From Microtetraspora niveoalba (lineage in GTDB: Bacteria > Actinomycetota > Actinomycetes > Streptosporangiales > Streptosporangiaceae), in contig NZ_BBYM01000020.1 of NCBI RefSeq assembly GCF_001570405.1, forward strand, positions 62,001-126,000: DNA of 64,000 bases, read 5' to 3'. The notes below the pieces were generated by a model that worked only from the letters and a program-made list of their open reading frames with translations, had not been told where the DNA came from and did not search any database. This document shows, piece by piece, positions 53,815 through 63,898 of this stretch. The translations under genes and the position numbers were made by a program. The number at the start of each line of letters is the position of its first letter. The stretch's first letter is position 1.

Positions 53815-53868
53815 AGTCCTTTGAATCCCTAGATGGTGTAGTTCGAACAAAGAGACGAGAATGTGGTT

Positions 53869-54807
53869 ATGCGCAGCATCTGGAAGGGCGCGATATCGTT
53901 CGGGCTGGTCACCATCCCCGTGAAGCTCTACTCCGCCACGGAGCAGAAGGACGTCTCCTTCCACCAGGTGCACCGGGAGGACGGCGGGCGGATCAAGTAC
54001 AAGCGGGTCTGCACGGTCGACGGCGAAGAGGTGCCGTACTCCGACATCGCCAAGGGATACGAGCTGGCCAGCGGCGACATGGTCGTGCTGACCGACGAGG
54101 ACTTCGCCGACCTGCCGCTCACCACCTCCCGCCGCATCGACGTGCTGCAGTTCAGCCCGGCCGAGCAGATCGACCCGATCTACTTCGCCAAGTCGTACTA
54201 CCTGGAGCCCGAGGCGCAGGGGGCGAAGCCGTACGTGCTGCTGCGGGACGCGCTGGAGCGCTCCGGGCAGGTGGCGATCGTGAAGGTGGCGCTGCGTCAG
54301 CGCGAGTCCCTGGCGACGCTCCGCGTCCGCGACGGCGTCTTCGTCCTGGAGACGATGTTGTGGCCGGACGAGGTGCGCGAGTCGGACTTCGCCTTCCTCG
54401 ACGAGGACATCGACGTACGCCCGCAGGAGCTCAAGATGGCGGAGTCCCTGATCGACACGATGGTCGCGGACTTCGATCCCGGGGAGTACAAGGACACCTA
54501 CCGCGAGGCGCTGCAGGCGATCATCGAGGCGAAGGTCGCGGGCAAGGAGGTGGTCGTTCCCGAGGGGCCCGCCGAGGAGAAGCCCGCCGTCGATCTGATG
54601 GCCGCACTGCGCGCCAGCGTCGAGGCCGCGAAGAGGGAGCGCGAGGGACGCGAGCCGGCCGCGAAGAAGGCGGCGGCGTCCGGCGGGAAGACCGCCGCGA
54701 AATCCGCGGGGAAGGCCGGAGGGAAGGCCGCGGCGAAGAAGGCGGCGTCCGAGGCCGAGGACGAGGAGAAGGCGCCGCGCAAGCGCGGAGCGCGCCGCTC
54801 CGCCTGA
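53869..54807 (+). CDS. ku: Ku protein for non-homologous end joining
   Basis: A 312-residue Ku homodimer subunit. MRSIWKGAISFGLVTIPVKLYSATEQKDVSFHQVHREDGGRIKYKRVC is the canonical bacterial Ku start; the core runs to about residue 250 (DLMAALRASVEAAK). The C-terminal ~60 residues are a Lys/Ala-rich tail (AAKKAAASGGKTAAKSAGKA), the histone-like extension that lets some actinobacterial Ku proteins bind DNA without ends. ATG 53869 is preferred over GTG 53863. Confidence 0.95.
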   Translation: MRSIWKGAISFGLVTIPVKLYSATEQKDVSFHQVHREDGGRIKYKRVCTVDGEEVPYSDIAKGYELASGDMVVLTDEDFADLPLTTSRRIDVLQFSPAEQIDPIYFAKSYYLEPEAQGAKPYVLLRDALERSGQVAIVKVALRQRESLATLRVRDGVFVLETMLWPDEVRESDFAFLDEDIDVRPQELKMAESLIDTMVADFDPGEYKDTYREALQAIIEAKVAGKEVVVPEGPAEEKPAVDLMAALRASVEAAKREREGREPAAKKAAASGGKTAAKSAGKAGGKAAAKKAASEAEDEEKAPRKRGARRSA

Positions 54808-55125: not shown

Positions 55126-55310
55126 CTGTAGTAGGGAAGGCGGGGAGCCGACGGCTCTCGTCCGCGACGTCCGCCTATATGCGCTTAAACGATGAATCTC
55201 ATCGTGTGGGTGAGGAGACGGAAGTCTCCCCCTGTGTGGTCCACGCCTCCCCGCGGATCTCGCTCTCAGGTCGAGCGATGATCACGATGAGGTCGTGAGC
55301 GCGGCTCCAC

Positions 55311-55670
55311 TCAGCCGACGGCCCCCGGGACCGGCACGGCGCCGGTGACCGCCGGTTCCGGCCGCTCTCGCAGGAACTCCAGGACCTGCCTGGGCAGGTG
55401 GATCGTGATGTTGTTGATCACGTTCTGACGCTGCCGCTGGTGCTGCCGCTGGTGCCCGCGCTGGTGCTGGCGGTTGCGGTTGTGGTTGCGGTTCCAGTTG
55501 CGGTTGCGCTGGGCGCGCCCCCAGCCGCCGCCGCAGCCCCCGCCGCAGCCGGCCTGGACGACGGCCGCGCTCGCCGTGGTCGTGGTGGTGGCCGCGCCGA
55601 GCGCCACGGCTCCACCCGTCATCGCGGTGCTGATCGCCAGCCCCGCGATGACGCTTTTGAACTTGGGCAT
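55311..55670 (-). CDS. Array gene 1: small secreted Cys-Gly / Asn-Arg-rich protein
   Basis: A 119-residue member of an eight-gene paralogous array; family not recognised. MPKFKSVIAGLAISTAMTGGAVALG...TASA is a Sec signal peptide (predicted cut after ASA). The mature part begins AVVQ and has the cluster CGGGCGGGWGR, the tract RNRNWNRNHNRNRQHQRGHQ, then the motif NVINNITIHLP. Its own C-terminus (LEFLRERPEPAVTGAVPVPGAVG) is Pro-rich and lacks the GGNGG tail of genes 2-5. AAGGAGAAGCGCA lies just before the ATG. The signal peptide is closest to that of gene 8 (KSVIAGLAIST). Mature protein strongly basic, two Cys. Confidence 0.8.
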   Translation of the reverse strand: MPKFKSVIAGLAISTAMTGGAVALGAATTTTTASAAVVQAGCGGGCGGGWGRAQRNRNWNRNHNRNRQHQRGHQRQHQRQRQNVINNITIHLPRQVLEFLRERPEPAVTGAVPVPGAVG

Positions 55671-55775
55671 TGCGCTTCTCCTTTGAAAGGAATTGATTGT
55701 CTCTTACCTTTCGCCGCTCTCCGGGATGAGATGGAGAACGATTGAGATCATCCGGAGTGGATCATCTCGATATCG

Positions 55776-55808
55776 TCTTGATTGCCGAGATTGCCGGGCG
55801 ACAAACGG
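55776..55808 (-). promoter_or_regulatory. Conserved leader element of array gene 1
   Basis: 106-138 nt upstream of the ATG. On the transcribed strand it reads CGTTTGTC, a short variable spacer, then (C)GGCAATCAAGA. It is the most diverged of the eight copies (GCAATC instead of GAAATC). Confidence 0.55.
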
Positions 55809-56017
55809 TGAGGTACGGATCTTTGGTGTCACATGTGTTTTGTTGAATATGCTCCGCCGGGAGCGATCCTTTGATTGAAATGAGAAATCGCCGACGGTGA
55901 GCCGTTCGGGCGATCGGGTATGAGGGCCCCTCGGGTCGATTCGGGCGGCCGAATGCGGGAGGCGTGCGGGAGGCGCCGGTCCAGCGGGATCCGGCGCCGT
56001 CTCCCGGTACACGGAAA

Positions 56018-56053
56018 GGCCCGTCCGGGCGGCTTGGGCCGACCGGACGGGCC
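56018..56053 (-). terminator. Terminator of array gene 2
   Basis: An 11-bp stem GGCCCGTCCGG (56018-56028) pairs with 56043-56053, about 195 nt beyond the stop of gene 2. Confidence 0.75.
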
Positions 56054-56247
56054 GTGGTTCTTCCAGTTGGGTGAGACCGGACGACGACCTGCCGGCCTTC
56101 GGGCGGTGCGTGATCCAGGTGACGCGCGGGGCGACGCCGCGTCCCCGATCCTTCCGCTCACACGAGGTCGCCGGGTTCACACCGGCGCCGATGTGTTGAG
56201 CGGACCGACCTCCCGGTCGTTCACGGTCTCACAACGGTGAAATGCGC

Positions 56248-56727
56248 TTACCGCTGGTTGGCGGTGCCGGCGGCGTTGCCGTTGCCGCCGTTGCCGCCGT
56301 TGGCGTTGGCGTTGGTGGAGCCGGCGATGGCGCCGCCGTTGCCGCCGTTGCCGCCGCGGGCCAGGACGAGCTGGGCGAGGATGTCCTCGGCCCGCAGGCC
56401 GCGCTCCTCACGGACCTGCTCGCGCACGCGCTCCCGCGGGATGTGCACGCGGACGTTGTTGATCACGTTCTGGCGCTGGTGCTCCTGCTGGCGCTGGTGC
56501 TCGCGCTGCTGCTGGTGGTTGCGGTTGTGGTTGCGGTTGTGGTTGCGGTTCCGGTGGCCACGGCCCCAGCCGCCGCCGCAGCCGCCGCCGCAGCCGCCGC
56601 CGCACCCGACCTGGACGACGCCGGCGTTCGCCGCGGTGGCCGTGGTGGCGGCGCCGAGCGCGACGGCTCCGCCGGTCAGCGCGGTGCTGATGGCCAGCAG
56701 CCCGACGAGGTTCTTGAACTTGGGCAT
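56248..56727 (-). CDS. Array gene 2: small secreted Cys-Gly / Asn-Arg-rich protein
   Basis: A 159-residue paralogue from ATG 56727 (AGGGGGAAACGCA before it); the open frame continues upstream but without the family start. Signal peptide MPKFKNLVGLLAISTALTGG to ANA. Mature: GVVQVGCGGGCGGGCGGGWGRG (three Cys), RNRNHNRNHNRNHQQQREHQ, VINNVRVHIPRE. An amphipathic charged helix RVREQVREERGLRAEDILAQLVLA follows, then the low-complexity tail GGNGGNGGAIAGSTNANANG. Genes 2-5 share this long C-terminal form. Function unknown; extracellular by signal peptide. Confidence 0.82.
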   Translation of the reverse strand: MPKFKNLVGLLAISTALTGGAVALGAATTATAANAGVVQVGCGGGCGGGCGGGWGRGHRNRNHNRNHNRNHQQQREHQRQQEHQRQNVINNVRVHIPRERVREQVREERGLRAEDILAQLVLARGGNGGNGGAIAGSTNANANGGNGGNGNAAGTANQR

Positions 56728-56831
56728 TGCGTTTCCCCCTGAAGGAATCAGATTCCTCTTGACGCTTCGACACTTTCGGGGAACCCCCCGAAGAATGCCC
56801 CGGATGCCCTTGATGTGGCATTTCCGTAATG

Positions 56832-56866
56832 TCTTGATTTCCGGCGGAGGGAGATGACAAACGCCG
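56832..56866 (-). promoter_or_regulatory. Conserved leader element of array gene 2
   Basis: 105-139 nt upstream of the ATG: CGTTTGTCA, spacer, CCGGAAATCAAGA on the transcribed strand. It is followed by a possible hairpin with ATGCC/GGCAT arms. Confidence 0.6.
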
Positions 56867-57029
56867 CAATTCCCTCCTTGGTCGGCTCTTTTCATTTCAT
56901 TGGGCGCGCCGCGTGCGACACGTTCGTGTTGGCGGCGCAGACCTTCACGACGCGATTCGGTCCCGTATGTAGGCGGGCGTCGGATCGGCGTGCGGTCGCG
57001 TGTTCTTCGGAAAAGGCCGAACATGGAAA

Positions 57030-57067
57030 ACCCTGCCCGGCTCGCACGAGGCGAGGCCGGGCAGGGT
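57030..57067 (-). terminator. Terminator of array gene 3
   Basis: An ~16-bp stem with one bulge (ACCCTGCCCGGC on the left arm), flanked by AAAA and TTTT, so it can work in both directions. It sits 270 nt beyond the stop of gene 3. Homologous stems end genes 4 and 5. Confidence 0.85.
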
Positions 57068-57195
57068 GGTGTTTTCCGCGAGGGAAGCGTTATGGGGGTG
57101 CGCCCTCGCTGCCGGTGTCGTAGCCGTCCCGCGTCTGGGGCTTCCGGCCCTTTTCCGGCCTGGTCGCGTTTCTCGTGAACGCGGGTCAGGAGGAA

Positions 57196-57317
57196 CCGCG
57201 TGCCAGGTGGCACGCGGAGAGGCGGGGATACGGCTTTCGCACACCGGCGGACTGACCGCCGCCGGTGTTCTCGTCAGGTGAGACCGGCCTCACGCGCGTG
57301 TCGCCGGGCGGTCTCAC
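57196..57317 (-). ncRNA. Structured 3' UTR of array gene 3 (three hairpins)
   Basis: Three stems: 57278-57286 with 57309-57317 (9 bp), 57242-57250 with 57259-57267 (9 bp), 57196-57204 with 57209-57217 (9 bp, AGGT loop). They recur in genes 4 and 5 with compensatory changes. Whether this is a separate RNA or part of the mRNA tail is unknown. Confidence 0.6.
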
Positions 57318-57336
57318 GGCCGGAGAATGCGCCTAC

Positions 57337-57831
57337 TTACGGCCGGTTGTTGGCGTTCTGGTTGGCGGCGCCTGCGGCGTTGCCGGTGCCGCCGTTGCCG
57401 CCGTTGGCGTTGGCGTTGGTGGAGCCGGCGATGGCGCCGCCGTTGCCGCCGTTGCCGCCGCGGGCCAGGACGAGCTGGGCGAGGATGTCCTCGGCCCGCA
57501 GGCCGCGCTCCTCACGGACCTGCTCGCGCTCGCGCTCCCGCGGGATGTGCAGGCGGATGTTGTTGATCACGTTCTGACGCTGGCGCTGCTGCTGGCGCTG
57601 GTGCTCGCGCTGGTGCTGGCGGTTGCGGTTGTGGTTGCGGTTCCAGTTGCGGTTCCGGTTGCCGCGACCCCAGCCGCCGCCGCCGCAGCCGCCGCCGCAG
57701 CCGCCGCCCCAGGTCTGGACGACGGAGGCGTTCGCCGTGGTGGCCGTGGTGGCGGCGCCCAGCGCGACGGCTCCGCCGGTCAGCGCGGTGCTGATGGCCA
57801 GCAGCCCGACGAGGTTCTTGAACTTCGGCAT
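57337..57831 (-). CDS. Array gene 3: small secreted Cys-Gly / Asn-Arg-rich protein
   Basis: A 164-residue paralogue. Signal peptide MPKFKNLVGLLAISTALTGG...TANA, then SVVQTWGGGCGGGCGGGGWGRG, RNRNWNRNHNRNRQHQREHQ, NVINNIRLHIPREREREQVREERGLRAEDILAQLVLA, and the tail GGNGGNGGAIAGSTNANANG...NQNANNRP. Nearly identical to gene 4 in the first 95 residues; differences concentrate in the REREREQ segment and the last ten residues. Two Cys. Ribosome site AGGGGGAAACGCA. Confidence 0.82.
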   Translation of the reverse strand: MPKFKNLVGLLAISTALTGGAVALGAATTATTANASVVQTWGGGCGGGCGGGGWGRGNRNRNWNRNHNRNRQHQREHQRQQQRQRQNVINNIRLHIPREREREQVREERGLRAEDILAQLVLARGGNGGNGGAIAGSTNANANGGNGGTGNAAGAANQNANNRP

Positions 57832-57934
57832 TGCGTTTCCCCCTGAAGGAATCAATTCCGCTTGACGCTTCGACATCCTCGTGGAATCCCCCGAAGAATG
57901 CCCCGGATGCCGCTGATGTGGCATTTCCGTAATG

Positions 57935-57969
57935 TCTTGATTTCCGGGTGAAGGAGAGGGCAAACGCCG
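57935..57969 (-). promoter_or_regulatory. Conserved leader element of array gene 3
   Basis: 104-138 nt upstream of the ATG: CGTTTGCC, spacer, CCGGAAATCAAGA, followed by a hairpin with ATGCC/GGCAT arms. Confidence 0.6.
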
Positions 57970-58127
57970 CTGTTCAGTTCTTAGTCGGCTCTTTTCGTTT
58001 CATTGGGCGCGTCGCGCAGAGAGTGGTTATGTGGATGACGCGGAGCCGTTCGGGAGGAGATTCCGCCGTGTGCGGCTATGTGGGCGTCACGCAGTTGTTT
58101 CCCCGTGCTCTTCGGAATGTGCGAAAA

Positions 58128-58165
58128 ACCCTGCCCGGCTCGCACGAGGCGAGGCCGGGCAGGGT
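58128..58165 (-). terminator. Terminator of array gene 4
   Basis: The same stem as that of gene 3 (ACCCTGCCCGGC arm), 268 nt beyond the stop of gene 4, flanked by A-run and T-run. Confidence 0.85.
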
Positions 58166-58294
58166 GGTGTTTTCCGCGAGGGAAGCGTTATGAGAGTGCG
58201 CCCTCGCTGCTGGTGTCGTAGCCGTCCCGCGTCTCGGGCTTCGGCCCTTTTCCGGCCTGGTCGCGTTCTTCTCGTGAACGCGGGCCAGGAGGAA

Positions 58295-58413
58295 CCGCGT
58301 TACAGACGGAACGCGGAGAGGCGGGGATACGGCTTTCGAGCACCGGCGGCCAGGCCGCCGCCGGTGTTCTCGTCAGGTGAGACCGTCCGCCGCTGTTCGA
58401 TCGGCGGTCTCAC
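58295..58413 (-). ncRNA. Structured 3' UTR of array gene 4 (three hairpins)
   Basis: Stems 58377-58385 with 58405-58413, 58341-58349 with 58358-58366, and 58295-58301 with 58310-58316. The last keeps CCGCGT but has T-A where gene 3 has G-C at the seventh pair. Confidence 0.6.
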
Positions 58414-58432
58414 GGCCGGAGAATGCGCTTAC

Positions 58433-58927
58433 TTACGGGACCAGCTGCTCGTCCTGGTTGGCGGCGCCTGCGGCGTTGCCGTTGCCGCCGTTGCCGCCGT
58501 TGGCGTTGGCGTTGGTGGAGCCGGCGATGGCGCCGCCGTTGCCGCCGTTGCCGCCACGGGCCAGGACGAGCTGGGCGAGGATGTCCTCGGCCCGCAGGCC
58601 GCGCTCCTCACGGACCTGCTCGCGCACGCGCTCCCGCGGGGTCTGCACGCGCACGTTGTTGATCACATTCTGACGCTGGCGCTGCTCCTCGCGCTGGTGC
58701 TCGCGCTGGTGCTGGCGGAGGCGGTTGTGGTTGCGGTTCCAGTTGCGGTTCCGGTTGCCGCGACCCCAGCCGCCGCCGCCGCAGCCGCCGCCGCAGCCGC
58801 CGCCCCAGGTCTGGACGACGGAGGCGTTCGCCGTGGTGGCCGTGGTGGCGGCGCCGAGCGCGACGGCTCCGCCGGTCAGCGCGGTGCTGATGGCCAGCAG
58901 CCCGACGAGGTTCTTGAACTTGGGCAT
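58433..58927 (-). CDS. Array gene 4: small secreted Cys-Gly / Asn-Arg-rich protein
   Basis: A 164-residue paralogue, the closest copy of gene 3: identical signal peptide and SVVQTWGGGCGGGCGGGGWGRG. The tract is RNRNWNRNHNRLRQHQREHQREEQ, then NVINNVRVQTPRERVREQVREERGLRAEDILAQLVLA and the GGNGG/NANANGG tail ending NQDEQLVP. The ribosome site GGGGGGATACACA differs slightly from the others. Function unknown. Confidence 0.82.
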   Translation of the reverse strand: MPKFKNLVGLLAISTALTGGAVALGAATTATTANASVVQTWGGGCGGGCGGGGWGRGNRNRNWNRNHNRLRQHQREHQREEQRQRQNVINNVRVQTPRERVREQVREERGLRAEDILAQLVLARGGNGGNGGAIAGSTNANANGGNGGNGNAAGAANQDEQLVP

Positions 58928-59032
58928 TGTGTATCCCCCCGAAGGAATCAGGTTCCTCTTGACGCTTCGACATCTTCGTGAAAGCCATCCGAAGAATGCC
59001 CCGGACGCCCTTGACGCGGCATTTCCGTATTA

Positions 59033-59070
59033 TGTTGATTTCCGGATCCGTGAGACGACAAACGCCGCGG
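59033..59070 (-). promoter_or_regulatory. Conserved leader element of array gene 4
   Basis: 106-143 nt upstream of the ATG: CGTTTGTCG, spacer, CCGGAAATCAACA. A hairpin with ACGCC/GGC arms follows. Confidence 0.6.
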
Positions 59071-59229
59071 TTCCGCTCTTAGTCAGCTCTTTTCATTTCG
59101 TTGGACACGTCGCACATTGCGCCTCTCCCTGAACGGCACGACTCTGCTCGCAGAGGGTTTCCAGCGCACGGCGGTGCGGGCGCCCGAGCGGTTCGTGTTC
59201 TTCCGGGAAAAGGATCCCGCGTCAAAAAA

Positions 59230-59264
59230 CCTGCCCGGCGTCGCATGAATGCGGGCCGGGCAGG
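59230..59264 (-). terminator. Terminator of array gene 5
   Basis: CCTGCCCGGC (59230-59239) pairs with 59255-59264 and an inner CGCAT/ATGCG stem extends it. Related to the terminators of genes 3 and 4. Confidence 0.8.
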
Positions 59265-59397
59265 GTGGTGCCTCTCGGCGAGGGGTGAGCCGGTAGAGAG
59301 CGCCCTCGCTGTTCGCGCCGGGGCCGGTCCGACGGCGGGGACCTTTTGTCCCCTTTCCGGCCTGCTCGCGTCCTTCGTGAACGTCGGTCAGGAAGAA

Positions 59398-59514
59398 CCG
59401 CGTAGTTATAAGTACGCGGATACCGTGGAAACGGCCTTCAGGCGCGACGGCGGCACATGCCGCCGGTTATCTGGAAGGTGAGACCGTCCGCCGCTGTTCG
59501 CTCGGCGATCTCAC
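59398..59514 (-). ncRNA. Structured 3' UTR of array gene 5 (three hairpins)
   Basis: Stems 59478-59486 with 59506-59514 (one G-U pair), 59448-59454 with 59459-59465, and 59398-59404 with 59413-59419. The last again keeps CCGCGT but has A-T at the seventh pair. Confidence 0.6.
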
Positions 59515-59533
59515 GGCCGGAGAATGCGCTTAC

Positions 59534-60025
59534 TTACGGGACAAGCGGGTTGTTCTGGTTGGCGGCGCCGGCAGCGTTGCCGGTGCCGCCGGTGCCGCCG
59601 TTGGCGTTGGCGTTGGTGGAGCCGGAGATGGCGCCGCCGTTGCCGCCGTTGCCGCCGCGGGCCAGGACGAGCTGGGCGAGGATGTCCTCGGCCAGGATGT
59701 CGCGGACGTCGCGGCCATCCTCACGGAACGGCTCGCGCTCGCGCTCCCGCGGGATCTGCAGGCGGATGTTGTTGATCACGTGCTGGCGCTGGCGCTGCTG
59801 CTGGCGCTGGTGCTCACGCTGGTGCTGGCGGAGGCGGTTGTGGTTGCGGTTCCAGTTGCGGTTGTGGCTGCGGCCACCCCAGCCGCCGCACCCGCCGCCG
59901 CCGCAGCCGACCTGGATGACGCCGGCGTTCGCCGTGGTGGCCGTGGCGGCGCCCAGGGCGACGGCTCCACCGGTCAGCGCGGTGCTGACGGCCAGCAGCC
60001 CCAGGAGGTTCTTGAACTTGGGCAT
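59534..60025 (-). CDS. Array gene 5: small secreted Cys-Gly / Asn-Arg-rich protein
   Basis: A 163-residue paralogue from ATG 60025. Signal MPKFKNLLGLLAVSTALTGG to ANA; mature GVIQVGCGGGGCGGWGGRSH, then NRNWNRNHNRLRQHQREHQ, HVINNIRLQIPRERERE. An insertion PFREDGRDVRDILAEDILAQLVLA duplicates the DILA helix motif. Tail GGNGGNGGAISGSTNANANG...NQNNPLVP. The Cys spacing (CGGGGCGGWGG) differs from genes 2-4. Two Cys. Confidence 0.82.
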   Translation of the reverse strand: MPKFKNLLGLLAVSTALTGGAVALGAATATTANAGVIQVGCGGGGCGGWGGRSHNRNWNRNHNRLRQHQREHQRQQQRQRQHVINNIRLQIPREREREPFREDGRDVRDILAEDILAQLVLARGGNGGNGGAISGSTNANANGGTGGTGNAAGAANQNNPLVP

Positions 60026-60130
60026 TGCGATTCTCCCTTGGAAGGAATTGATTTGCCCCGGCACTCTGGAATTCCGGGAATTTTCTCGGAAGCGTGCCCG
60101 GATGACCCTTGCCGGATCATCTCCACGGTG

Positions 60131-60167
60131 TCTCTGATTTCCGTCCGTGTCGGGCGGCAAACGGTGG
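60131..60167 (-). promoter_or_regulatory. Conserved leader element of array gene 5
   Basis: 106-142 nt upstream of the ATG: CGTTTGCCG, spacer, ACGGAAATCAGAGA. A second conserved box with core AGCGACAAGCA lies at 60186-60202. Confidence 0.6.
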
Positions 60168-60354
60168 TTGGCGGCTCTTAGTCTTTGCTTGTCGCTCTAT
60201 TAATGAAGTAGGTCGGTTGAAGTTGATTTGCCACTGATGCCCCTTATGTCGGAATTTCTGGGGGAGCAATCGGTGCGGATCGCCCCGTGGCGAGGGGCCG
60301 CGCCCGCTCGGCCCGTGCCGTACGAACAGGGGGACGGGGCGGTCAAAAAAAGAA

Positions 60355-60381
60355 ATCCGGCCGGCGAGACGCCGGCCGGAT
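60355..60381 (-). terminator. Terminator of array gene 6
   Basis: A perfect 12-bp stem (ATCCGGCCGGCG, 60355-60366 with 60370-60381) followed on the minus strand by a T-rich run (TTTCTTTTTTT), a classic intrinsic terminator. Confidence 0.9.
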
Positions 60382-60597
60382 GAATGTGATTTCCATGTGG
60401 ATGGGATGACGGCTCGCGGACGGGAGGCGCGCCGCCGTCCCTATGAGAGTCGTCCCTATGAGAATCGTCGAGAACGTACGTGCTTTCCGGACGGTGAACG
60501 GGAGTCGGCGCCTCGCCCGCGTTACGTGCCCTGATCCCGTGCGCGCGGCGCGGAGCCGTCGGTCCGGCCGTGCTCCCGCCTCGGTGGGTGCGGCGGC

Positions 60598-60963
60598 TCA
60601 GTCGAGGACTCGGAATTCGCGGACGATGTCCCTGCCGTTGGAGCTCGACGTGGTGGTGGCGGTCGGCGGCAGGTTGCGGTCGGCCGGGACGACGACGTCG
60701 TTGATCAGGAACTGCGTCTGCTCCTGGTTCTGCTTCTGCTCCTTGTGCTGGCTCTGGTTCTTGTTGTTCCAGTTGCGGTTCCAGCCGTTCCCACAGCCGC
60801 CGCCGCCGCAGCCGCCGTCGCACCAGCCGTCGCCGCAGCCGTCGACCCGGACCATGCCGGCGTTCGCCGCGGTGGTGGTGGTCGCCGCGCCGAGCGCGAC
60901 GGCGCCCGTGATCATCGCGGCGCCGGTGGCGAGAAGCCCGGCGAGTCTTGTGAACTTGGGCAT
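60598..60963 (-). CDS. Array gene 6: most diverged paralogue, four cysteines
   Basis: A 121-residue member. The signal peptide is altered (MPKFTRLAGLLATGAAMITG...ANA). Mature part GMVRVDGCGDGWCDGGCGGGGCGNGW has four Cys; the basic tract is replaced by NRNWNNKNQSQHKEQKQNQEQTQ (Lys/Gln rather than Arg/His). The family motif becomes FLINDVVVP, and the tail is PTATTTSSSNGRDIVREFRVLD. It shows which parts are under constraint: Cys-Gly cluster, polar tract, (V/L)IN(N/D). Ribosome site AAGGAGAAACGCA. Confidence 0.8.
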   Translation of the reverse strand: MPKFTRLAGLLATGAAMITGAVALGAATTTTAANAGMVRVDGCGDGWCDGGCGGGGCGNGWNRNWNNKNQSQHKEQKQNQEQTQFLINDVVVPADRNLPPTATTTSSSNGRDIVREFRVLD

Positions 60964-61072
60964 TGCGTTTCTCCTTCGAAAGGAATGCGTTCGCCCTCCC
61001 GGTCCGGCGTTTCGGAGATTTCCGGGTCGCCGCGGAGGACGGCGGAGCGACCTCGGTGATCACTCCCGCGGG

Positions 61073-61109
61073 TCTGTGATTTCCTTCCGTATCGAGCGGC
61101 AAACGATGG
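61073..61109 (-). promoter_or_regulatory. Conserved leader element of array gene 6
   Basis: 110-146 nt upstream of the ATG: CGTTTGCCG, spacer, GGAAATCACAGA. The AGCGACAAGCA box is at 61128-61144. Confidence 0.6.
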
Positions 61110-61216
61110 TTGGCCGCTCTTAGGCGCTGCTTGTCGCTCTATTACTAATGTTGCGATGATAAACGCAGATTTGCGGGAACTCGCGAGATATGTCCGAGTT
61201 GGAGAGGCGCGCAAAA

Positions 61217-61243
61217 ATCCGGCCGGCGAGATGCCGGCCGGAT
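61217..61243 (-). terminator. Terminator of array gene 7
   Basis: An 11-bp stem ATCCGGCCGGC (61217-61227 with 61233-61243), followed on the minus strand by TTTT. Nearly the same stem as gene 6. Confidence 0.88.
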
Positions 61244-61460
61244 CGGACGCTATTTCCCGGCGAGGGCCGCGGATGGCCGCCCTCCTCGGAGCCCCGCGCC
61301 CACCGGGCCGGGTTCCGCCTCTCCTCCGGGATTCGGGATGTCAACTCGTCAGGCGTGCCCGCGCCCTCCGCGGCCTTCCGCCTCCTGCTGCGAGGCCGTA
61401 CGGCCCCGGAGGAACGCGGGCACGTGGGATCACTTCTCGCCGGCGCCGGCGGGCGGCTCC

Positions 61461-61832
61461 TTAGATGCCGTCGTCGTCGCCTTCGCCGTCGAGCACGGCG
61501 GCGTTGGACAGGATCTCCGGCAGGTCGTCGTCGAACTCCTCACCGTCGCGGCCCACGCGGATGTTGTTGATCACGTGCTGGCGCTGGCGCTGGTGCTCGG
61601 TCTGACGCTCGTGCTGACGCTGGTGGTTGCGGTTGTGGTTGCGGTTGTGGTTGCGGTTGTGGCCGCGGCCACCCCAGCCGCCGCCGCAGCCGCCGCCGCA
61701 GCCGCCGCCCCAGGTCTGGACGACGGAGGCGCTCGCCGCGGTGGTGGTGGCGGCGGCGCCGAGCGCGACGGCTCCGCCGGTCAGCGCCGTGCTGATGGCG
61801 AGAAGCCCGACGACGTTCTTGAACTTGGGCAT
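61461..61832 (-). CDS. Array gene 7: secreted paralogue with acidic tail
   Basis: A 123-residue member from ATG 61832. Signal MPKFKNVVGLLAISTALTGG to ASA; mature SVVQTWGGGCGGGCGGGWGG, RGHNRNHNRNHNRNHQRQHE, HVINNIRVGRDG. In contrast to genes 2-5 the C-terminus is acidic (EEFDDDLPEILSNAAVLDGEGDDDGI), so the protein is polarised: basic middle, acidic end. Two Cys, with the highest His content of the array. The spacing of the CGGGCGGGW cluster is kept. Confidence 0.82.
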   Translation of the reverse strand: MPKFKNVVGLLAISTALTGGAVALGAAATTTAASASVVQTWGGGCGGGCGGGWGGRGHNRNHNRNHNRNHQRQHERQTEHQRQRQHVINNIRVGRDGEEFDDDLPEILSNAAVLDGEGDDDGI

Positions 61833-61932
61833 AGCGATTCTCCCTTGAAAGGAATTGATTTGCCCGACACTCTGACGTTCTCCGAATTCGGAGAATTCGC
61901 GGATGACCCTTACGTGGATCATCTTCGCGTCG

Positions 61933-61965
61933 TCTAGATTTCCTTCGGCGTCGAGCGATAAACGG
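61933..61965 (-). promoter_or_regulatory. Conserved leader element of array gene 7
   Basis: 101-133 nt upstream of the ATG: CGTTTATCG, spacer, GGAAATCTAGA. The second box (AATAAAGCGACAAGCG) is at 61987-62003. Confidence 0.6.
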
Positions 61966-62062
61966 TGATCGGAGGCTTTTGCCGTCCGCTTGTCGCTTTA
62001 TTGGAGACGTTGCGCGATTACTGCTACTTATGCGGTGATGTGCGCTATATGTCGCAATTGCG

Positions 62063-62130
62063 CCCTATGGTGAACGCCCTGAGGGGCGGGCGTGCGCCCC
62101 TATGGCGAACGCCCTGATGAGTGGGCGGGG
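62063..62130. repeat. 35-bp imperfect direct repeat downstream of array gene 8
   Basis: CCCTATGG(T/C)GAACGCCCTGA occurs at 62063-62082 and 62098-62117, period 35, followed in each by a G-rich stretch. It lies between the gene 8 terminator and the gene 7 promoter region. Confidence 0.7.
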
Positions 62131-62141
62131 AACGCGAAAAG

Positions 62142-62176
62142 ACCACCCGGTCGGCGGTGTACGCCGACCGGGTGGT
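62142..62176 (-). terminator. Terminator of array gene 8
   Basis: A perfect 15-bp stem (62142-62156 with 62162-62176, 5-nt loop) followed on the minus strand by CTTTTCGCG, about 200 nt beyond the stop of gene 8. Confidence 0.85.
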
Positions 62177-62379
62177 CCCGGTCTTGCTGTGGTGAGGGCT
62201 CCCGCGACTCCTCATTGCGGGAGCCCTCGGGTGTCATCGCGGTGGATCACCGTCCACCGCCCCGTGTAGTGCTCTCGTTCTTCCGTCGTGCCCGCGCTCT
62301 CCGTGAGGCTCGCGTCCGGCCGGAACCGCGGCTCCGGTGGAGCGTGGGCACGTCACGAATCCTTCGTCGCCTCCGTTGT

Positions 62380-62706
62380 TTAGAAGTCGTCGAAGCCCCG
62401 GTCGAAGCCCCGGTCGCGCTCACGGCCGACGCGGATGTTGTTGATCACGAACTGGCGCTGGTTCTGGTTCTGACGGTTGGTCTGGTGCTGACGGTTGTGG
62501 TTCCGGTTGAAGTTGCGGTTGTGGTTGCGGTTGCGGCCGCGGCCACCCCAGCCCCCGCCGCAGCCACCGCCGCAGCCGCCACACCCGACCTGGACCACGC
62601 CGGCGTTCGCCGCGGTGGTGGTGGTCGCCGCGCCGAGCGCCACGGCACCGCCGGTCAGCGCCGTGCTGATGGCGAGCCCCGCGATGACACTCTTGAACTT
62701 GGGCAT
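62380..62706 (-). CDS. Array gene 8: shortest secreted paralogue
   Basis: A 108-residue member, first in transcriptional order. Signal MPKFKSVIAGLAISTALTGG to ANA; mature GVVQVGCGGCGGGCGGGWGG (three Cys), RGRNRNHNRNFNRNHNRQHQ, TNRQNQNQRQFVINNIRVGRERDRGFDRGFDDF. It ends soon after the VINNI motif with a short RGFD repeat. The ribosome site is AAGGGGGAAACGCA. It may be close to the minimal unit: signal, Cys-Gly cluster, Asn/Arg tract, VINNI. Confidence 0.82.
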   Translation of the reverse strand: MPKFKSVIAGLAISTALTGGAVALGAATTTTAANAGVVQVGCGGCGGGCGGGWGGRGRNRNHNRNFNRNHNRQHQTNRQNQNQRQFVINNIRVGRERDRGFDRGFDDF

Positions 62707-62806
62707 TGCGTTTCCCCCTTGAAAGGAATGGTCGCCCCGTTTTTCGACGTTTTTCAAATGCCTCTGAAAAACGACTCGGATGTCACTGGATGGTGCATCC
62801 TGGTTG

Positions 62807-62839
62807 TCTTGATTTCCGTGCAGAGCGCCCGACAAACGG
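62807..62839 (-). promoter_or_regulatory. Conserved leader element of array gene 8
   Basis: 101-133 nt upstream of the ATG: CGTTTGTCG, spacer, CGGAAATCAAGA. The second box (AATAAAGCGACAAGCG) is at 62861-62877. Confidence 0.6.
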
Positions 62840-62995
62840 CAATCGTGCGCTTTTACTCCGCGCTTGTCGCTTTATTGACGATGTTGAACTCTTATTGCTG
62901 ATTATGATGTGATATGTCCCGTAATGTCCGATTTAGGATGGCGGGGTGGGGGAGGGCGATATCGTCGGAAGCGGCGGGTGGACAGAGGAGGACGC

Positions 62996-63898
62996 GTGGG
63001 TGCCGAGCCGATTCCGGACTGGCCGGGAGAGCTGATCGAGCTGGGAGACACGCGGATCCACGTACGGGCGACACCGAGCGGACCTGAGGAGCGGGCGGTG
63101 TTCGTCCACGGGCTCGCGGGCTCCGCCACCAACTGGACCGACCTGATGGGCGAGCTGGCCGGCGAGGTCAGCGGCCGGGCCCTCGACCTGCCCGGAGCGG
63201 GCTTCTCGCCGGCGCCCCCCGACGGCGACTACTCGGTGGACGGCCACGCCCGCGCGGTCGTCGCGCTGATCGAGCACCTCGGCGGCCCGGTCCACCTGTT
63301 CGGCAACTCTCTCGGCGGCGCGGTGTCCGTACGCGTCGCGGCCACCCGGCCCGAACTGGTCAGGTCGCTCGTCCTCGTGTCACCCGCGCTGCCCGACCTG
63401 CTCCCCAGGTACGGCCCGGCCCGCGTGGCCGTCTCGGCCGCCCCGCGCGTCGGGGAGTGGGCGATCCGGCGGATGAGCGCGGTCCCCGCCGAGCGGCGGG
63501 TCCGGGCGACGCTCGGCATGTGCTACGCCGACGTCGGCCGCGTCCACCCGGAACGCGTACGGCTCGCCGTGGAGGAGCTGCGCCGCCGGGACGCGCTGGA
63601 GCACGCGGGCCAGGCGCTGGTCGGCTCCGCCAGGGGCATCGTGGGCGAGTACTTCCGCACCGGGCCGGACAACCTGTGGCGGCAGGCCGCCCGGGTGACC
63701 GCGCCCACGCTGGTGATCCACGGCCTCAGGGACCGGCTCGTGGACGCCCGGATGGCGCGGCGCGCCGGACGCGCGTTCCCCGATGTGCGTCTCGTCACAA
63801 TCCCCAACGCCGGGCACGTCGCGCAGATGGAGTTTCCCGGGATCGTGGCCCGCGAGGCCGCCCGGCTGATCGCCGAGACACGCGTACGCGCCGGGTGA
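62996..63898 (+). CDS. Alpha/beta hydrolase upstream of moeZ
   Basis: A 300-residue hydrolase from GTG 62996, chosen because GAGGAGGA stands 5 nt upstream; longer in-frame starts have none. Oxyanion region AVFVHGLAGSATNWTDLMGEL, nucleophile elbow VHLFGNSLGGAVSVRVA (GNSLGG), acid in LVIHGLRDRLVDARM, histidine in IPNAGHVAQMEFP. No signal peptide, so cytoplasmic. Substrate unknown. It is divergent from the array and, in the usual actinobacterial order, belongs with the TetR/DUF3107 block 10 kb away. Confidence 0.9.
   Translation: MGAEPIPDWPGELIELGDTRIHVRATPSGPEERAVFVHGLAGSATNWTDLMGELAGEVSGRALDLPGAGFSPAPPDGDYSVDGHARAVVALIEHLGGPVHLFGNSLGGAVSVRVAATRPELVRSLVLVSPALPDLLPRYGPARVAVSAAPRVGEWAIRRMSAVPAERRVRATLGMCYADVGRVHPERVRLAVEELRRRDALEHAGQALVGSARGIVGEYFRTGPDNLWRQAARVTAPTLVIHGLRDRLVDARMARRAGRAFPDVRLVTIPNAGHVAQMEFPGIVAREAARLIAETRVRAG

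What the first reader, a model, noticed from the sequence alone, without database searches (positions are those of the whole stretch)
55311..62706. Eight tandem genes for an unrecognised family of small secreted Cys-Gly/Asn-Arg-rich proteins
Eight same-strand paralogues (108-164 aa) share a near-invariant signal peptide (MPKFKxxxGLLAIST), a mature start (A/G/S)VVQ, a CGGGCGGGW-type cluster, an Asn/Arg/His/Gln tract (for example RNRNHNRN) and a VINNI motif. They differ in the C-terminus: a GGNGG/NANANGG tail in 2-5, acidic in 7, Thr/Ser in 6, short RGFD in 8, Pro-rich in 1. A constant export and core part with variable tails suggests diversifying cell-surface, matrix or interaction proteins. 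The Cys/His/Asn content also allows metal binding. I know no named family with this layout. Function is open.
Basis: partly seen in the sequence, partly recalled or inferred. Interest (0 to 1): 0.85.

Follow-up and report, generated by a model that had tools for sequence, protein, structure and literature searches.

The report
Secreted-protein family with shared RNA leader
Eight neighbouring genes in a soil actinomycete encode small exported proteins that share one promoter, one folded RNA leader and one export signal, and relatives put very different proteins behind that same front end, possibly for the coat of the filaments or spores.

Summary
In detail: eight same-strand paralogues (108-164 aa) with a shared Sec-type signal, Cys/Gly cluster, Asn/Arg/Gln/His tract and VINN[IV] motif (g6 diverges). 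No Pfam, NCBIfam or PDB family fits. The genome is a Microtetraspora (Streptosporangiaceae) with ten leader-bearing copies.

The larger finding is non-coding. Each copy carries the same ~145-nt upstream block: promoter-like GTTTGY-N14-GGAAAT, then a 5' UTR with two covarying hairpins (detected in nine of ten). It matches no Rfam family; in the own genome it was found (E<=0.01) only before these genes. In 145 leader-bearing genes from 34 genomes the signal peptides form one cluster, the mature parts 27-55. Cargo includes low-complexity proteins, two collagen-like fusions and one PF00144 serine-hydrolase fusion. The array lies between ku and an alpha/beta hydrolase; in six sampled leaderless genomes that pair lies within 0.8 kb.

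Tails are not hypervariable: four subtypes keep their order in five genomes. Cys-based metal binding is weakened: 17 of 46 window-type proteins lack mature Cys.

Best reading: disordered coat or matrix proteins under a SigB/SigF-like promoter, working like rodlins or chaplins without being chaplins. Expression and function are untested.

The parts
55311..55670 (-). g1, 119 aa secreted paralogue, Pro-rich tail
   Evidence: ORF and SD; orthologues in 4 other genomes
55671..55812 (-). g1 leader block (R1 match); twin hairpins at 55703-55786
56248..56727 (-). g2, 159 aa, GGNGG/NANANGG tail
56835..56862 (-). g2 promoter-like GTTTGY-N14-GGAAATCA
   Evidence: contig coordinates converted
56759..56842 (-). 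g2 twin-hairpin 5' UTR
   Evidence: R2 match
57337..57831 (-). g3, 164 aa, GGNGG tail
   Evidence: AlphaFold mean pLDDT 46
57938..57965 (-). g3 promoter-like element
57862..57945 (-). g3 twin-hairpin 5' UTR
58433..58927 (-). g4, 164 aa, GGNGG tail
59036..59063 (-). g4 promoter-like element
58959..59043 (-). g4 twin-hairpin 5' UTR
59534..60025 (-). g5, 163 aa, GGNGG tail
60135..60162 (-). g5 promoter-like element
60058..60142 (-). g5 twin-hairpin 5' UTR
60598..60963 (-). g6, 121 aa, most divergent; conserved tail LPPTATTTSSSNGRDIVREFRVLD
   Evidence: orthologues in 4 other genomes
61077..61104 (-). g6 promoter-like element (leader found by R1, not by R2)
61461..61832 (-). g7, 123 aa, acidic tail
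61834..61971 (-). g7 leader block; twin hairpins at 61864-61943
62380..62706 (-). g8, 108 aa, RGFD tail
62810..62837 (-). g8 promoter-like element
62736..62817 (-). g8 twin-hairpin 5' UTR
56018..56053 (-). terminator-like hairpin after g2
   Evidence: coordinates converted from its offsets; no shuffle control
57030..57067 (-). terminator-like hairpin after g3
58128..58165 (-). terminator-like hairpin after g4
59230..59264 (-). terminator-like hairpin after g5
60356..60380 (-). terminator-like hairpin after g6
61216..61244 (-). terminator-like hairpin after g7
62140..62178 (-). terminator-like hairpin after g8
53863..54807 (+). ku, left border of the array locus
   Evidence: PF02735 E 1.1e-56; synteny
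62909..63898 (+). alpha/beta hydrolase, right border of the array locus
   Evidence: PF00561 E 2.3e-29; synteny

Best explanation
The array is a set of probably monocistronic genes for small, intrinsically disordered exported coat or matrix proteins. Each gene has its own promoter of a SigB/SigF-like layout (GTTTGY-N14-GGAAAT), a 5' UTR of about 105 nt with two hairpins that may stabilise the message or tune translation, a Sec signal peptide cut at AxA, and a mature part that may bind polyanions or itself through the Asn/Arg/Gln/His tract and the short hydrophobic VINNI-like strand; tails give subtype-specific contacts. The promoter-leader-signal front end is one conserved cassette used in the Streptosporangiaceae for many different cargos. 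Shown by computation: paralogy, export-type signal, shared front end, hairpin covariation, near-exclusive use of the front end in the own genome, syntenic locus, cargo diversity. Inferred: transcription start, sigma factor, timing, abundance, coat role, the hairpins' function.
For: AxA columns; a loose A-x-[AGS] pattern near the expected site in 148 of 149 leader-bearing proteins. Exact promoter pattern: 6 hits in 8.47 Mb, all in the array, reversed control 0; spacer 14 in 133 of 143, 13 in 9, 15 in 1. S. coelicolor SigB-homologue promoters have a GTTT -35 and a similar spacer, GTTT being best kept for the sporulation sigmas SigF, SigH and SigN (PMC8346170, passages read); two SigBFG sigmas over the cut-off in the genome. 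UTR folding z -2.29 against -0.45 upstream and -0.49 in coding, n=77; 56 cells changed on both sides against 24.0 (sd 4.8) shuffled, 0 of 500. One signal cluster and 27 (unmasked) or 55 (masked) mature clusters in 145 genes. Fusions to PF00144 (1.7e-63) and to a collagen repeat (27.4 bits, cut-off 27.2; a second at 25.8, below it). Terminator-like hairpins in 7 of 7 spacers. Strongly biased codon use.
Against: No expression, proteome or localisation data. No leader of 143 has G at the third -10 base (A 122, C 18, T 3), which is almost invariant in the SigB-type promoters. No sorting signal: LPxTA occurs only in g6 and its four orthologues with no hydrophobic segment after it, so anchoring is unexplained. 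The same genome also has chaplin domains, so a coat is already available. The serine-hydrolase fusion could mean wall targeting instead. The terminator scan did not exceed its shuffles, and one search had no shuffle control and found none after g1. Low pLDDT from 10 low-complexity sequences is weak evidence for disorder. R2 misses the g6 leader. Some cargo is acidic or His-rich, which no single binding mode explains.
Confidence: 0.5

Rival explanations
1. Secreted defence or competition peptides: a conserved pre-region with diverse, often basic mature parts acting as antimicrobials, as in conotoxin or amphibian peptide precursors (recalled).
For: One signal cluster, 27-55 mature clusters; Arg/His/Asn-rich mature parts in several classes.
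Against: Subtypes and order conserved in five genomes; dN/dS of g1, g6 and g8 below 1; acidic tails and collagen-like cargo occur.
Confidence: 0.15
2. Extracellular metal or polyanion binders (Cys/His/Arg-rich), for example scavengers or storage proteins.
For: 2-4 Cys in all eight window proteins and one invariant Cys column; His-rich cargo in other genera.
Against: Mature Cys absent in 17 of 46 window-type proteins; the commoner trait is Asn/Gln (median 20% N+Q, 2% C, 4% H over 149).
Confidence: 0.12
3. Targeting modules for cell-wall enzymes: the Asn/Arg/Gln tract binds the wall or its polymers, mostly alone, sometimes fused to an enzyme.
For: PF00144 fusion in G085 behind the LLRDITLVVTPAQK type (L115); a contig-end gene in G012 (L050) with a related signal and the same domain, but no R1 leader hit.
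Against: 1 enzyme fusion among 149 leader-bearing genes.
Confidence: 0.15
4. The leader is a ligand-sensing riboswitch or thermosensor rather than a stabilising hairpin pair.
For: Structure kept by covariation across genera.
Against: No Rfam match at gathering score (window only); no invariant loop in A6; only two simple hairpins.
Confidence: 0.1

Closest known systems
Rodlins RdlA/RdlB of Streptomyces (PMC5314377, abstract start in a listing, and one text passage)
   Same: Small secreted coat proteins of a filamentous actinomycete; the passage ties Ser, Gln or Asn at three RdlB sites to beta-sheet formation.
   Different: No sequence comparison was made. That rodlins lack an Arg/Asn tract is recalled. 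Here many subtypes share one leader RNA.
Chaplins (PF03777)
   Same: Gene families for secreted coat proteins.
   Different: No PF03777 match for any of the eight; chaplin domains lie elsewhere in the same genome (C51).
SspA of Actinoplanes missouriensis (PMC13293333, abstract read)
   Same: Putatively disordered spore-surface protein of a sporangium former.
   Different: SspA has a sortase-dependent signal and a known phenotype; the window proteins show no such anchor and no phenotype is known.
SigB-homologue promoters of S. coelicolor (PMC8346170, passages read)
   Same: GTTT -35 element, 14-nt spacer, GG-led -10 with A at the fifth base.
   Different: Third -10 base is A in 122, C in 18, T in 3 and G in 0 of 143 leaders.
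Conotoxin-type precursors (recalled)
   Same: Constant signal with diverse mature parts.
   Different: Here promoter and structured UTR are constant too, and subtypes are stable between species.

Membership tests
Chaplins (PF03777) | ChpA-C domain | tested here: not met
   no PF03777 hit for the 8 proteins at E<=10
Rodlins | homology to RdlA/RdlB | not tested
   No rodlin sequence or model was compared
Rodlins / functional amyloids | fibril formation | not testable with these tools
   Needs ThT, EM or X-ray fibre data
Sortase-anchored surface proteins (SspA type) | LPxTG-like motif followed by a hydrophobic segment and basic tail | tested here: not met
   LPxT[GAS] in the last 45 residues of 5 of 149, all g6 orthologues (LPPTA), with no hydrophobic segment after it by eye
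Sec-exported proteins | basic N-terminus, hydrophobic core, AxA site | tested here: met
   invariant A33 and A35 and core, by eye; no SignalP was available
SigB/SigF-type promoter class | spacer of 12-14 between GTTT-led -35 and GG-led -10 | tested here: met
   spacer 14 in 133, 13 in 9, 15 in 1 of 143; the GTTT box itself was required to enter the count
SigB/SigF-type promoter class | GGG at the start of -10 | tested here: not met
   G at the third base in 0 of 143
Known Rfam leader or riboswitch | match at gathering score | tested here: not met
   window 55200-63200: 20 weak matches, all below gathering
Any Pfam or NCBIfam family | score over curated cut-off | tested here: not met
   eight window proteins; best sub-threshold hits: New_glue 0.0017 and MAP_0585_fam 0.0025, likely compositional

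The most novel reading that the evidence does not exclude
The unit that evolves is not a protein but a promoter + twin-hairpin leader RNA + signal-peptide cassette, found in the sampled genomes only in the Streptosporangiaceae, that is copied in a nursery locus between ku and a hydrolase and receives or diversifies unrelated cargo, giving each genus its own set of surface-matrix proteins under one shared developmental switch. The leader RNA would be a new RNA family.
Probability: 0.5. Interest if true: 0.78.

Novelty: new variant of a known kind. Interest (0 to 1): 0.62.

Why it matters
It gives Microtetraspora, Planotetraspora and relatives a candidate set of coat or matrix proteins with a single regulatory handle, adds a structured leader RNA that Rfam does not hold, and offers a bacterial case in which the non-coding front end and export signal stay fixed while the product changes. 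The conserved promoter lets a few tests find the sigma factor and the regulon.

Tried and rejected
RNAalifold on the 180-column leader alignment gave no pair, probably because the hairpins were misaligned. A shorter UTR alignment (A6, 40 of the 73 UTRs that passed my length, score and redundancy filters) with a named structure gave clear covariation. I read that structure off these same rows, so the slid controls favour it somewhat; the fold z-scores do not depend on it. A hairpin across the GTTT box was considered by eye and dropped as inconsistent. Known RNA family: no match. Chaplin replacement: rejected, chaplin domains coexist. Structure: mean pLDDT 46.4, pTM 0.13, so no fold search was run; the second structure job was not used. 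Terminators: the tool's scan was no higher than its shuffles (8 against 9.5); my looser fold found long GC stems in 7 of 7 spacers, none after g1, without a shuffle control. In one search two of 33 leader hits seemed to lack a family-like ORF (G077, G065 158739); one search showed that I had picked the wrong frame, and both have a signal-type ORF. Literature: the listings showed no paper on this family; the Frankia secretome paper (passages) was not relevant. dS is 0.05-0.43 over whole genes, so dN/dS is noisy.
Full report
WHAT IS THERE. The eight ORFs are real and lie where stated. All are on the minus strand, GC3 is 0.92-0.98, and codon use is strongly biased (Asn AAC 123 of 124, Gln CAG 79 of 79). 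The alignment has 33 invariant columns. g6 (60598-60963) is the odd member. No Pfam or NCBIfam family reaches its cut-off and no PDB chain matches the ten-sequence profile at E 0.01.

WHERE IT IS. The window lies in an 8.47-Mb genome, contig C20. A same-genus genome (G001) has a contig of 430,939 bases, the length of NZ_BSSE01000004.1, Microtetraspora sp. NBRC 16547, which one search returned as a relative; the genus is thus very probably Microtetraspora, family Streptosporangiaceae. Two further close copies lie on contig C16 and one distant 390-aa protein, with no GTTT box at the usual place, on C13. The protein profile was found in 11 of 60 genomes, the own included; all 11 are of the own family, which supplied 37 of the 60.

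THE CONSTANT FRONT END. The regions upstream of the ten close copies and their same-genus relatives align over about the last 170 bases. A sequence model (R1, 32 leaders) finds ten leaders before the ten genes in the own genome (E 2.4e-23 to 1.4e-14) and one weak hit (E 0.66) elsewhere; 150 of 1015 first-look candidates were scored. The exact pattern GTTTGYC-N10-16-GGAAATCA occurs six times, all before array genes, reversed control none. Over 143 leaders with a GTTT box the spacer is 14 in 133, 13 in 9 and 15 in 1; GTTT lies a median 134 nt before the start codon, range 115-162. Two A's about 17 nt before GTTT are nearly invariant (98 and 96% among 85 deduplicated leaders). This resembles the -35/-10 layout of SigB-homologue promoters (PMC8346170, passages read) except for the third -10 base, which is never G here. 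The genome has two SigBFG-family sigmas over the cut-off. Which sigma acts, and where transcription starts, is not shown.

THE LEADER RNA. Downstream of the box, 77 deduplicated UTRs fold with mean z -2.29, against -0.45 for the stretch upstream and -0.49 for coding sequence of the same genes. On 40 UTRs two hairpins (19 pairs) have 56 cells changed on both sides against 24.0 (sd 4.8) in shuffles, 0 of 500 as high; slid versions have 17-33. A covariance model (R2) finds nine sites in the own genome at E<=1, all before family genes; it misses g6 (150 of 1196 candidates scored). On 45 held loci it gave 72 matches at E<=0.1; these include the same window sites twice (window and L020), sequences used to build it, others not used, and six short matches opposite a true site. 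No Rfam family matches at its threshold (array region only). Seven of seven spacers hold a strong GC hairpin whose T-run begins 230-307 nt after the stop, which suggests single-gene transcripts; the standard scan did not exceed its shuffles, and none was found after g1.

THE VARIABLE CARGO. R1 hits 13 of 61 genomes, one per genus, in the family sample, 32 of 121 in the order sample and 6 of 197 in the class sample, the own genome included each time. All hits are in the own family; these larger searches use stricter filters and score few candidates per genome, so absence elsewhere is provisional. In the loci fetched, nhmmer with the same leader alignment gave 150 leader hits, 149 with a start codon; not every hit was fetched. 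The 33 hits looked at all lead into a signal-type ORF once two start choices are corrected. Classes by regular expression: window type 46 (5 genomes), LLRDFTLVVTPFQK 20 (14), AKDVAIGFQDKTN 23 (10), NNxN 28 (13), Gly/His 8 (7), collagen-like 2 (1), PF00144 fusion 1 (1), other 21 (15). One of the 'other' (L164 2689, E 0.003) looks like a false hit. The 145 with leader E<=1e-3 come from 34 genomes (one hit without a start and four weaker ones dropped). Among them the signal parts form one cluster and the mature parts 27 (no masking) or 55 (masked). The leader search does not use the signal, so the signal result is separate evidence; but the leaders behind the model were chosen through the protein family. 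The largest mature cluster (77) joins window type and LLRDF type through the Asn/Arg/Gln tract, which may be composition.

THE LOCUS. The flanking genes are ku (PF02735) and an alpha/beta hydrolase (PF00561). They flank the array in the four Microtetraspora, G064, G085, G060, G025 and Planotetraspora phitsanulokensis, and leader genes lie between them in G008 and G012. In six genomes of the family without a leader hit the matched parts of the two genes lie close: about 20 to 320 bases apart in G005, G016, G022, G017 and G023 and about 770 in G018. G007 has 2 kb between them with a His-rich secreted ORF and no leader match. In G006, G014 and G048 they are on different contigs, and in several genomes one of them was not found at E 1e-60. 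The main arrays were not tested for these borders. The link to ku is taken as a neighbourhood, not a function.

EVOLUTION. g1, g6, g7 and g8 each have an orthologue in all five genomes compared, in the same order; the g2-g5 type is expanded within lineages (tree without printed supports). dN/dS against G000: g1 0.30-0.64, g6 0.46-0.62, g7 0.44-1.29 (2 of 4 above 1), g8 0.21-0.33; ku 0.09-0.17 (three genomes) and hydrolase 0.15-0.25 (four). Constraint is weaker than in the flanks but mostly purifying.

HOW IT LIKELY WORKS. Sec export with AxA cleavage is well supported by sequence. The mature proteins are low-complexity (median N+Q 20% over 149) and g3 has no confident model. Small, multi-copy, exported, Asn/Gln-rich proteins in spore-forming actinomycetes, with collagen-like fusions, fit a coat or matrix best; rodlins, chaplins and SspA are working analogies, not relatives. 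The genome's chaplin domains mean this would be an additional layer. I put the coat reading at 0.5 and the description of the shared cassette much higher.

LIMITS. That nothing was found in print rests on the listings in an open-access library only.

Noticed in passing
L019:3333-4505 and L122:417-1460: Long relatives: NRN/Q tract followed by Pro/Thr region and LG-rich (ADAGAGLG/ADLGVSADLG-like) repeats; the own-genome copy starts with TTG and has no GTTT box at the usual place.
   Followed up: partly
L115:2-1408 (-), L050:2-346 (-): PF00144 serine-hydrolase domain behind the family signal; in L115 also behind the Arg/Gln tract and LLRDITLVVTPAQK motif.
   Followed up: partly
L118:329-1000 (-), L119:190-1008 (-): Collagen-like GPQGPQG repeats behind the tract; L119 falls just below the Pfam cut-off and changes character after the repeats.
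   Followed up: partly
L159:4366-5438: Leader genes whose products show SVSVGQSNTNS-type repeats reminiscent of curlin or rodlin (recalled look); similarity not tested.
   Followed up: no
L057:2530-3542, L023:6686-7783: Family genes without a GTTT box of their own lie directly downstream of a leader-bearing gene, so probably in an operon.
   Followed up: partly
L184 (G007 between ku and hydrolase): His-rich secreted ORF between the same borders, without a leader match; may be an unrelated or eroded member.
   Followed up: partly
G065 (L121, L125, L170): Contig length 4,189,976 equals my recollection of Thermobispora bispora; it has four leader hits.
   Followed up: no
window 55680-62730, just before each start codon: The SD is preceded by a complementary CCTT stretch (CCTTTCAAGGGGG), a possible third hairpin masking the ribosome site.
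   Followed up: no
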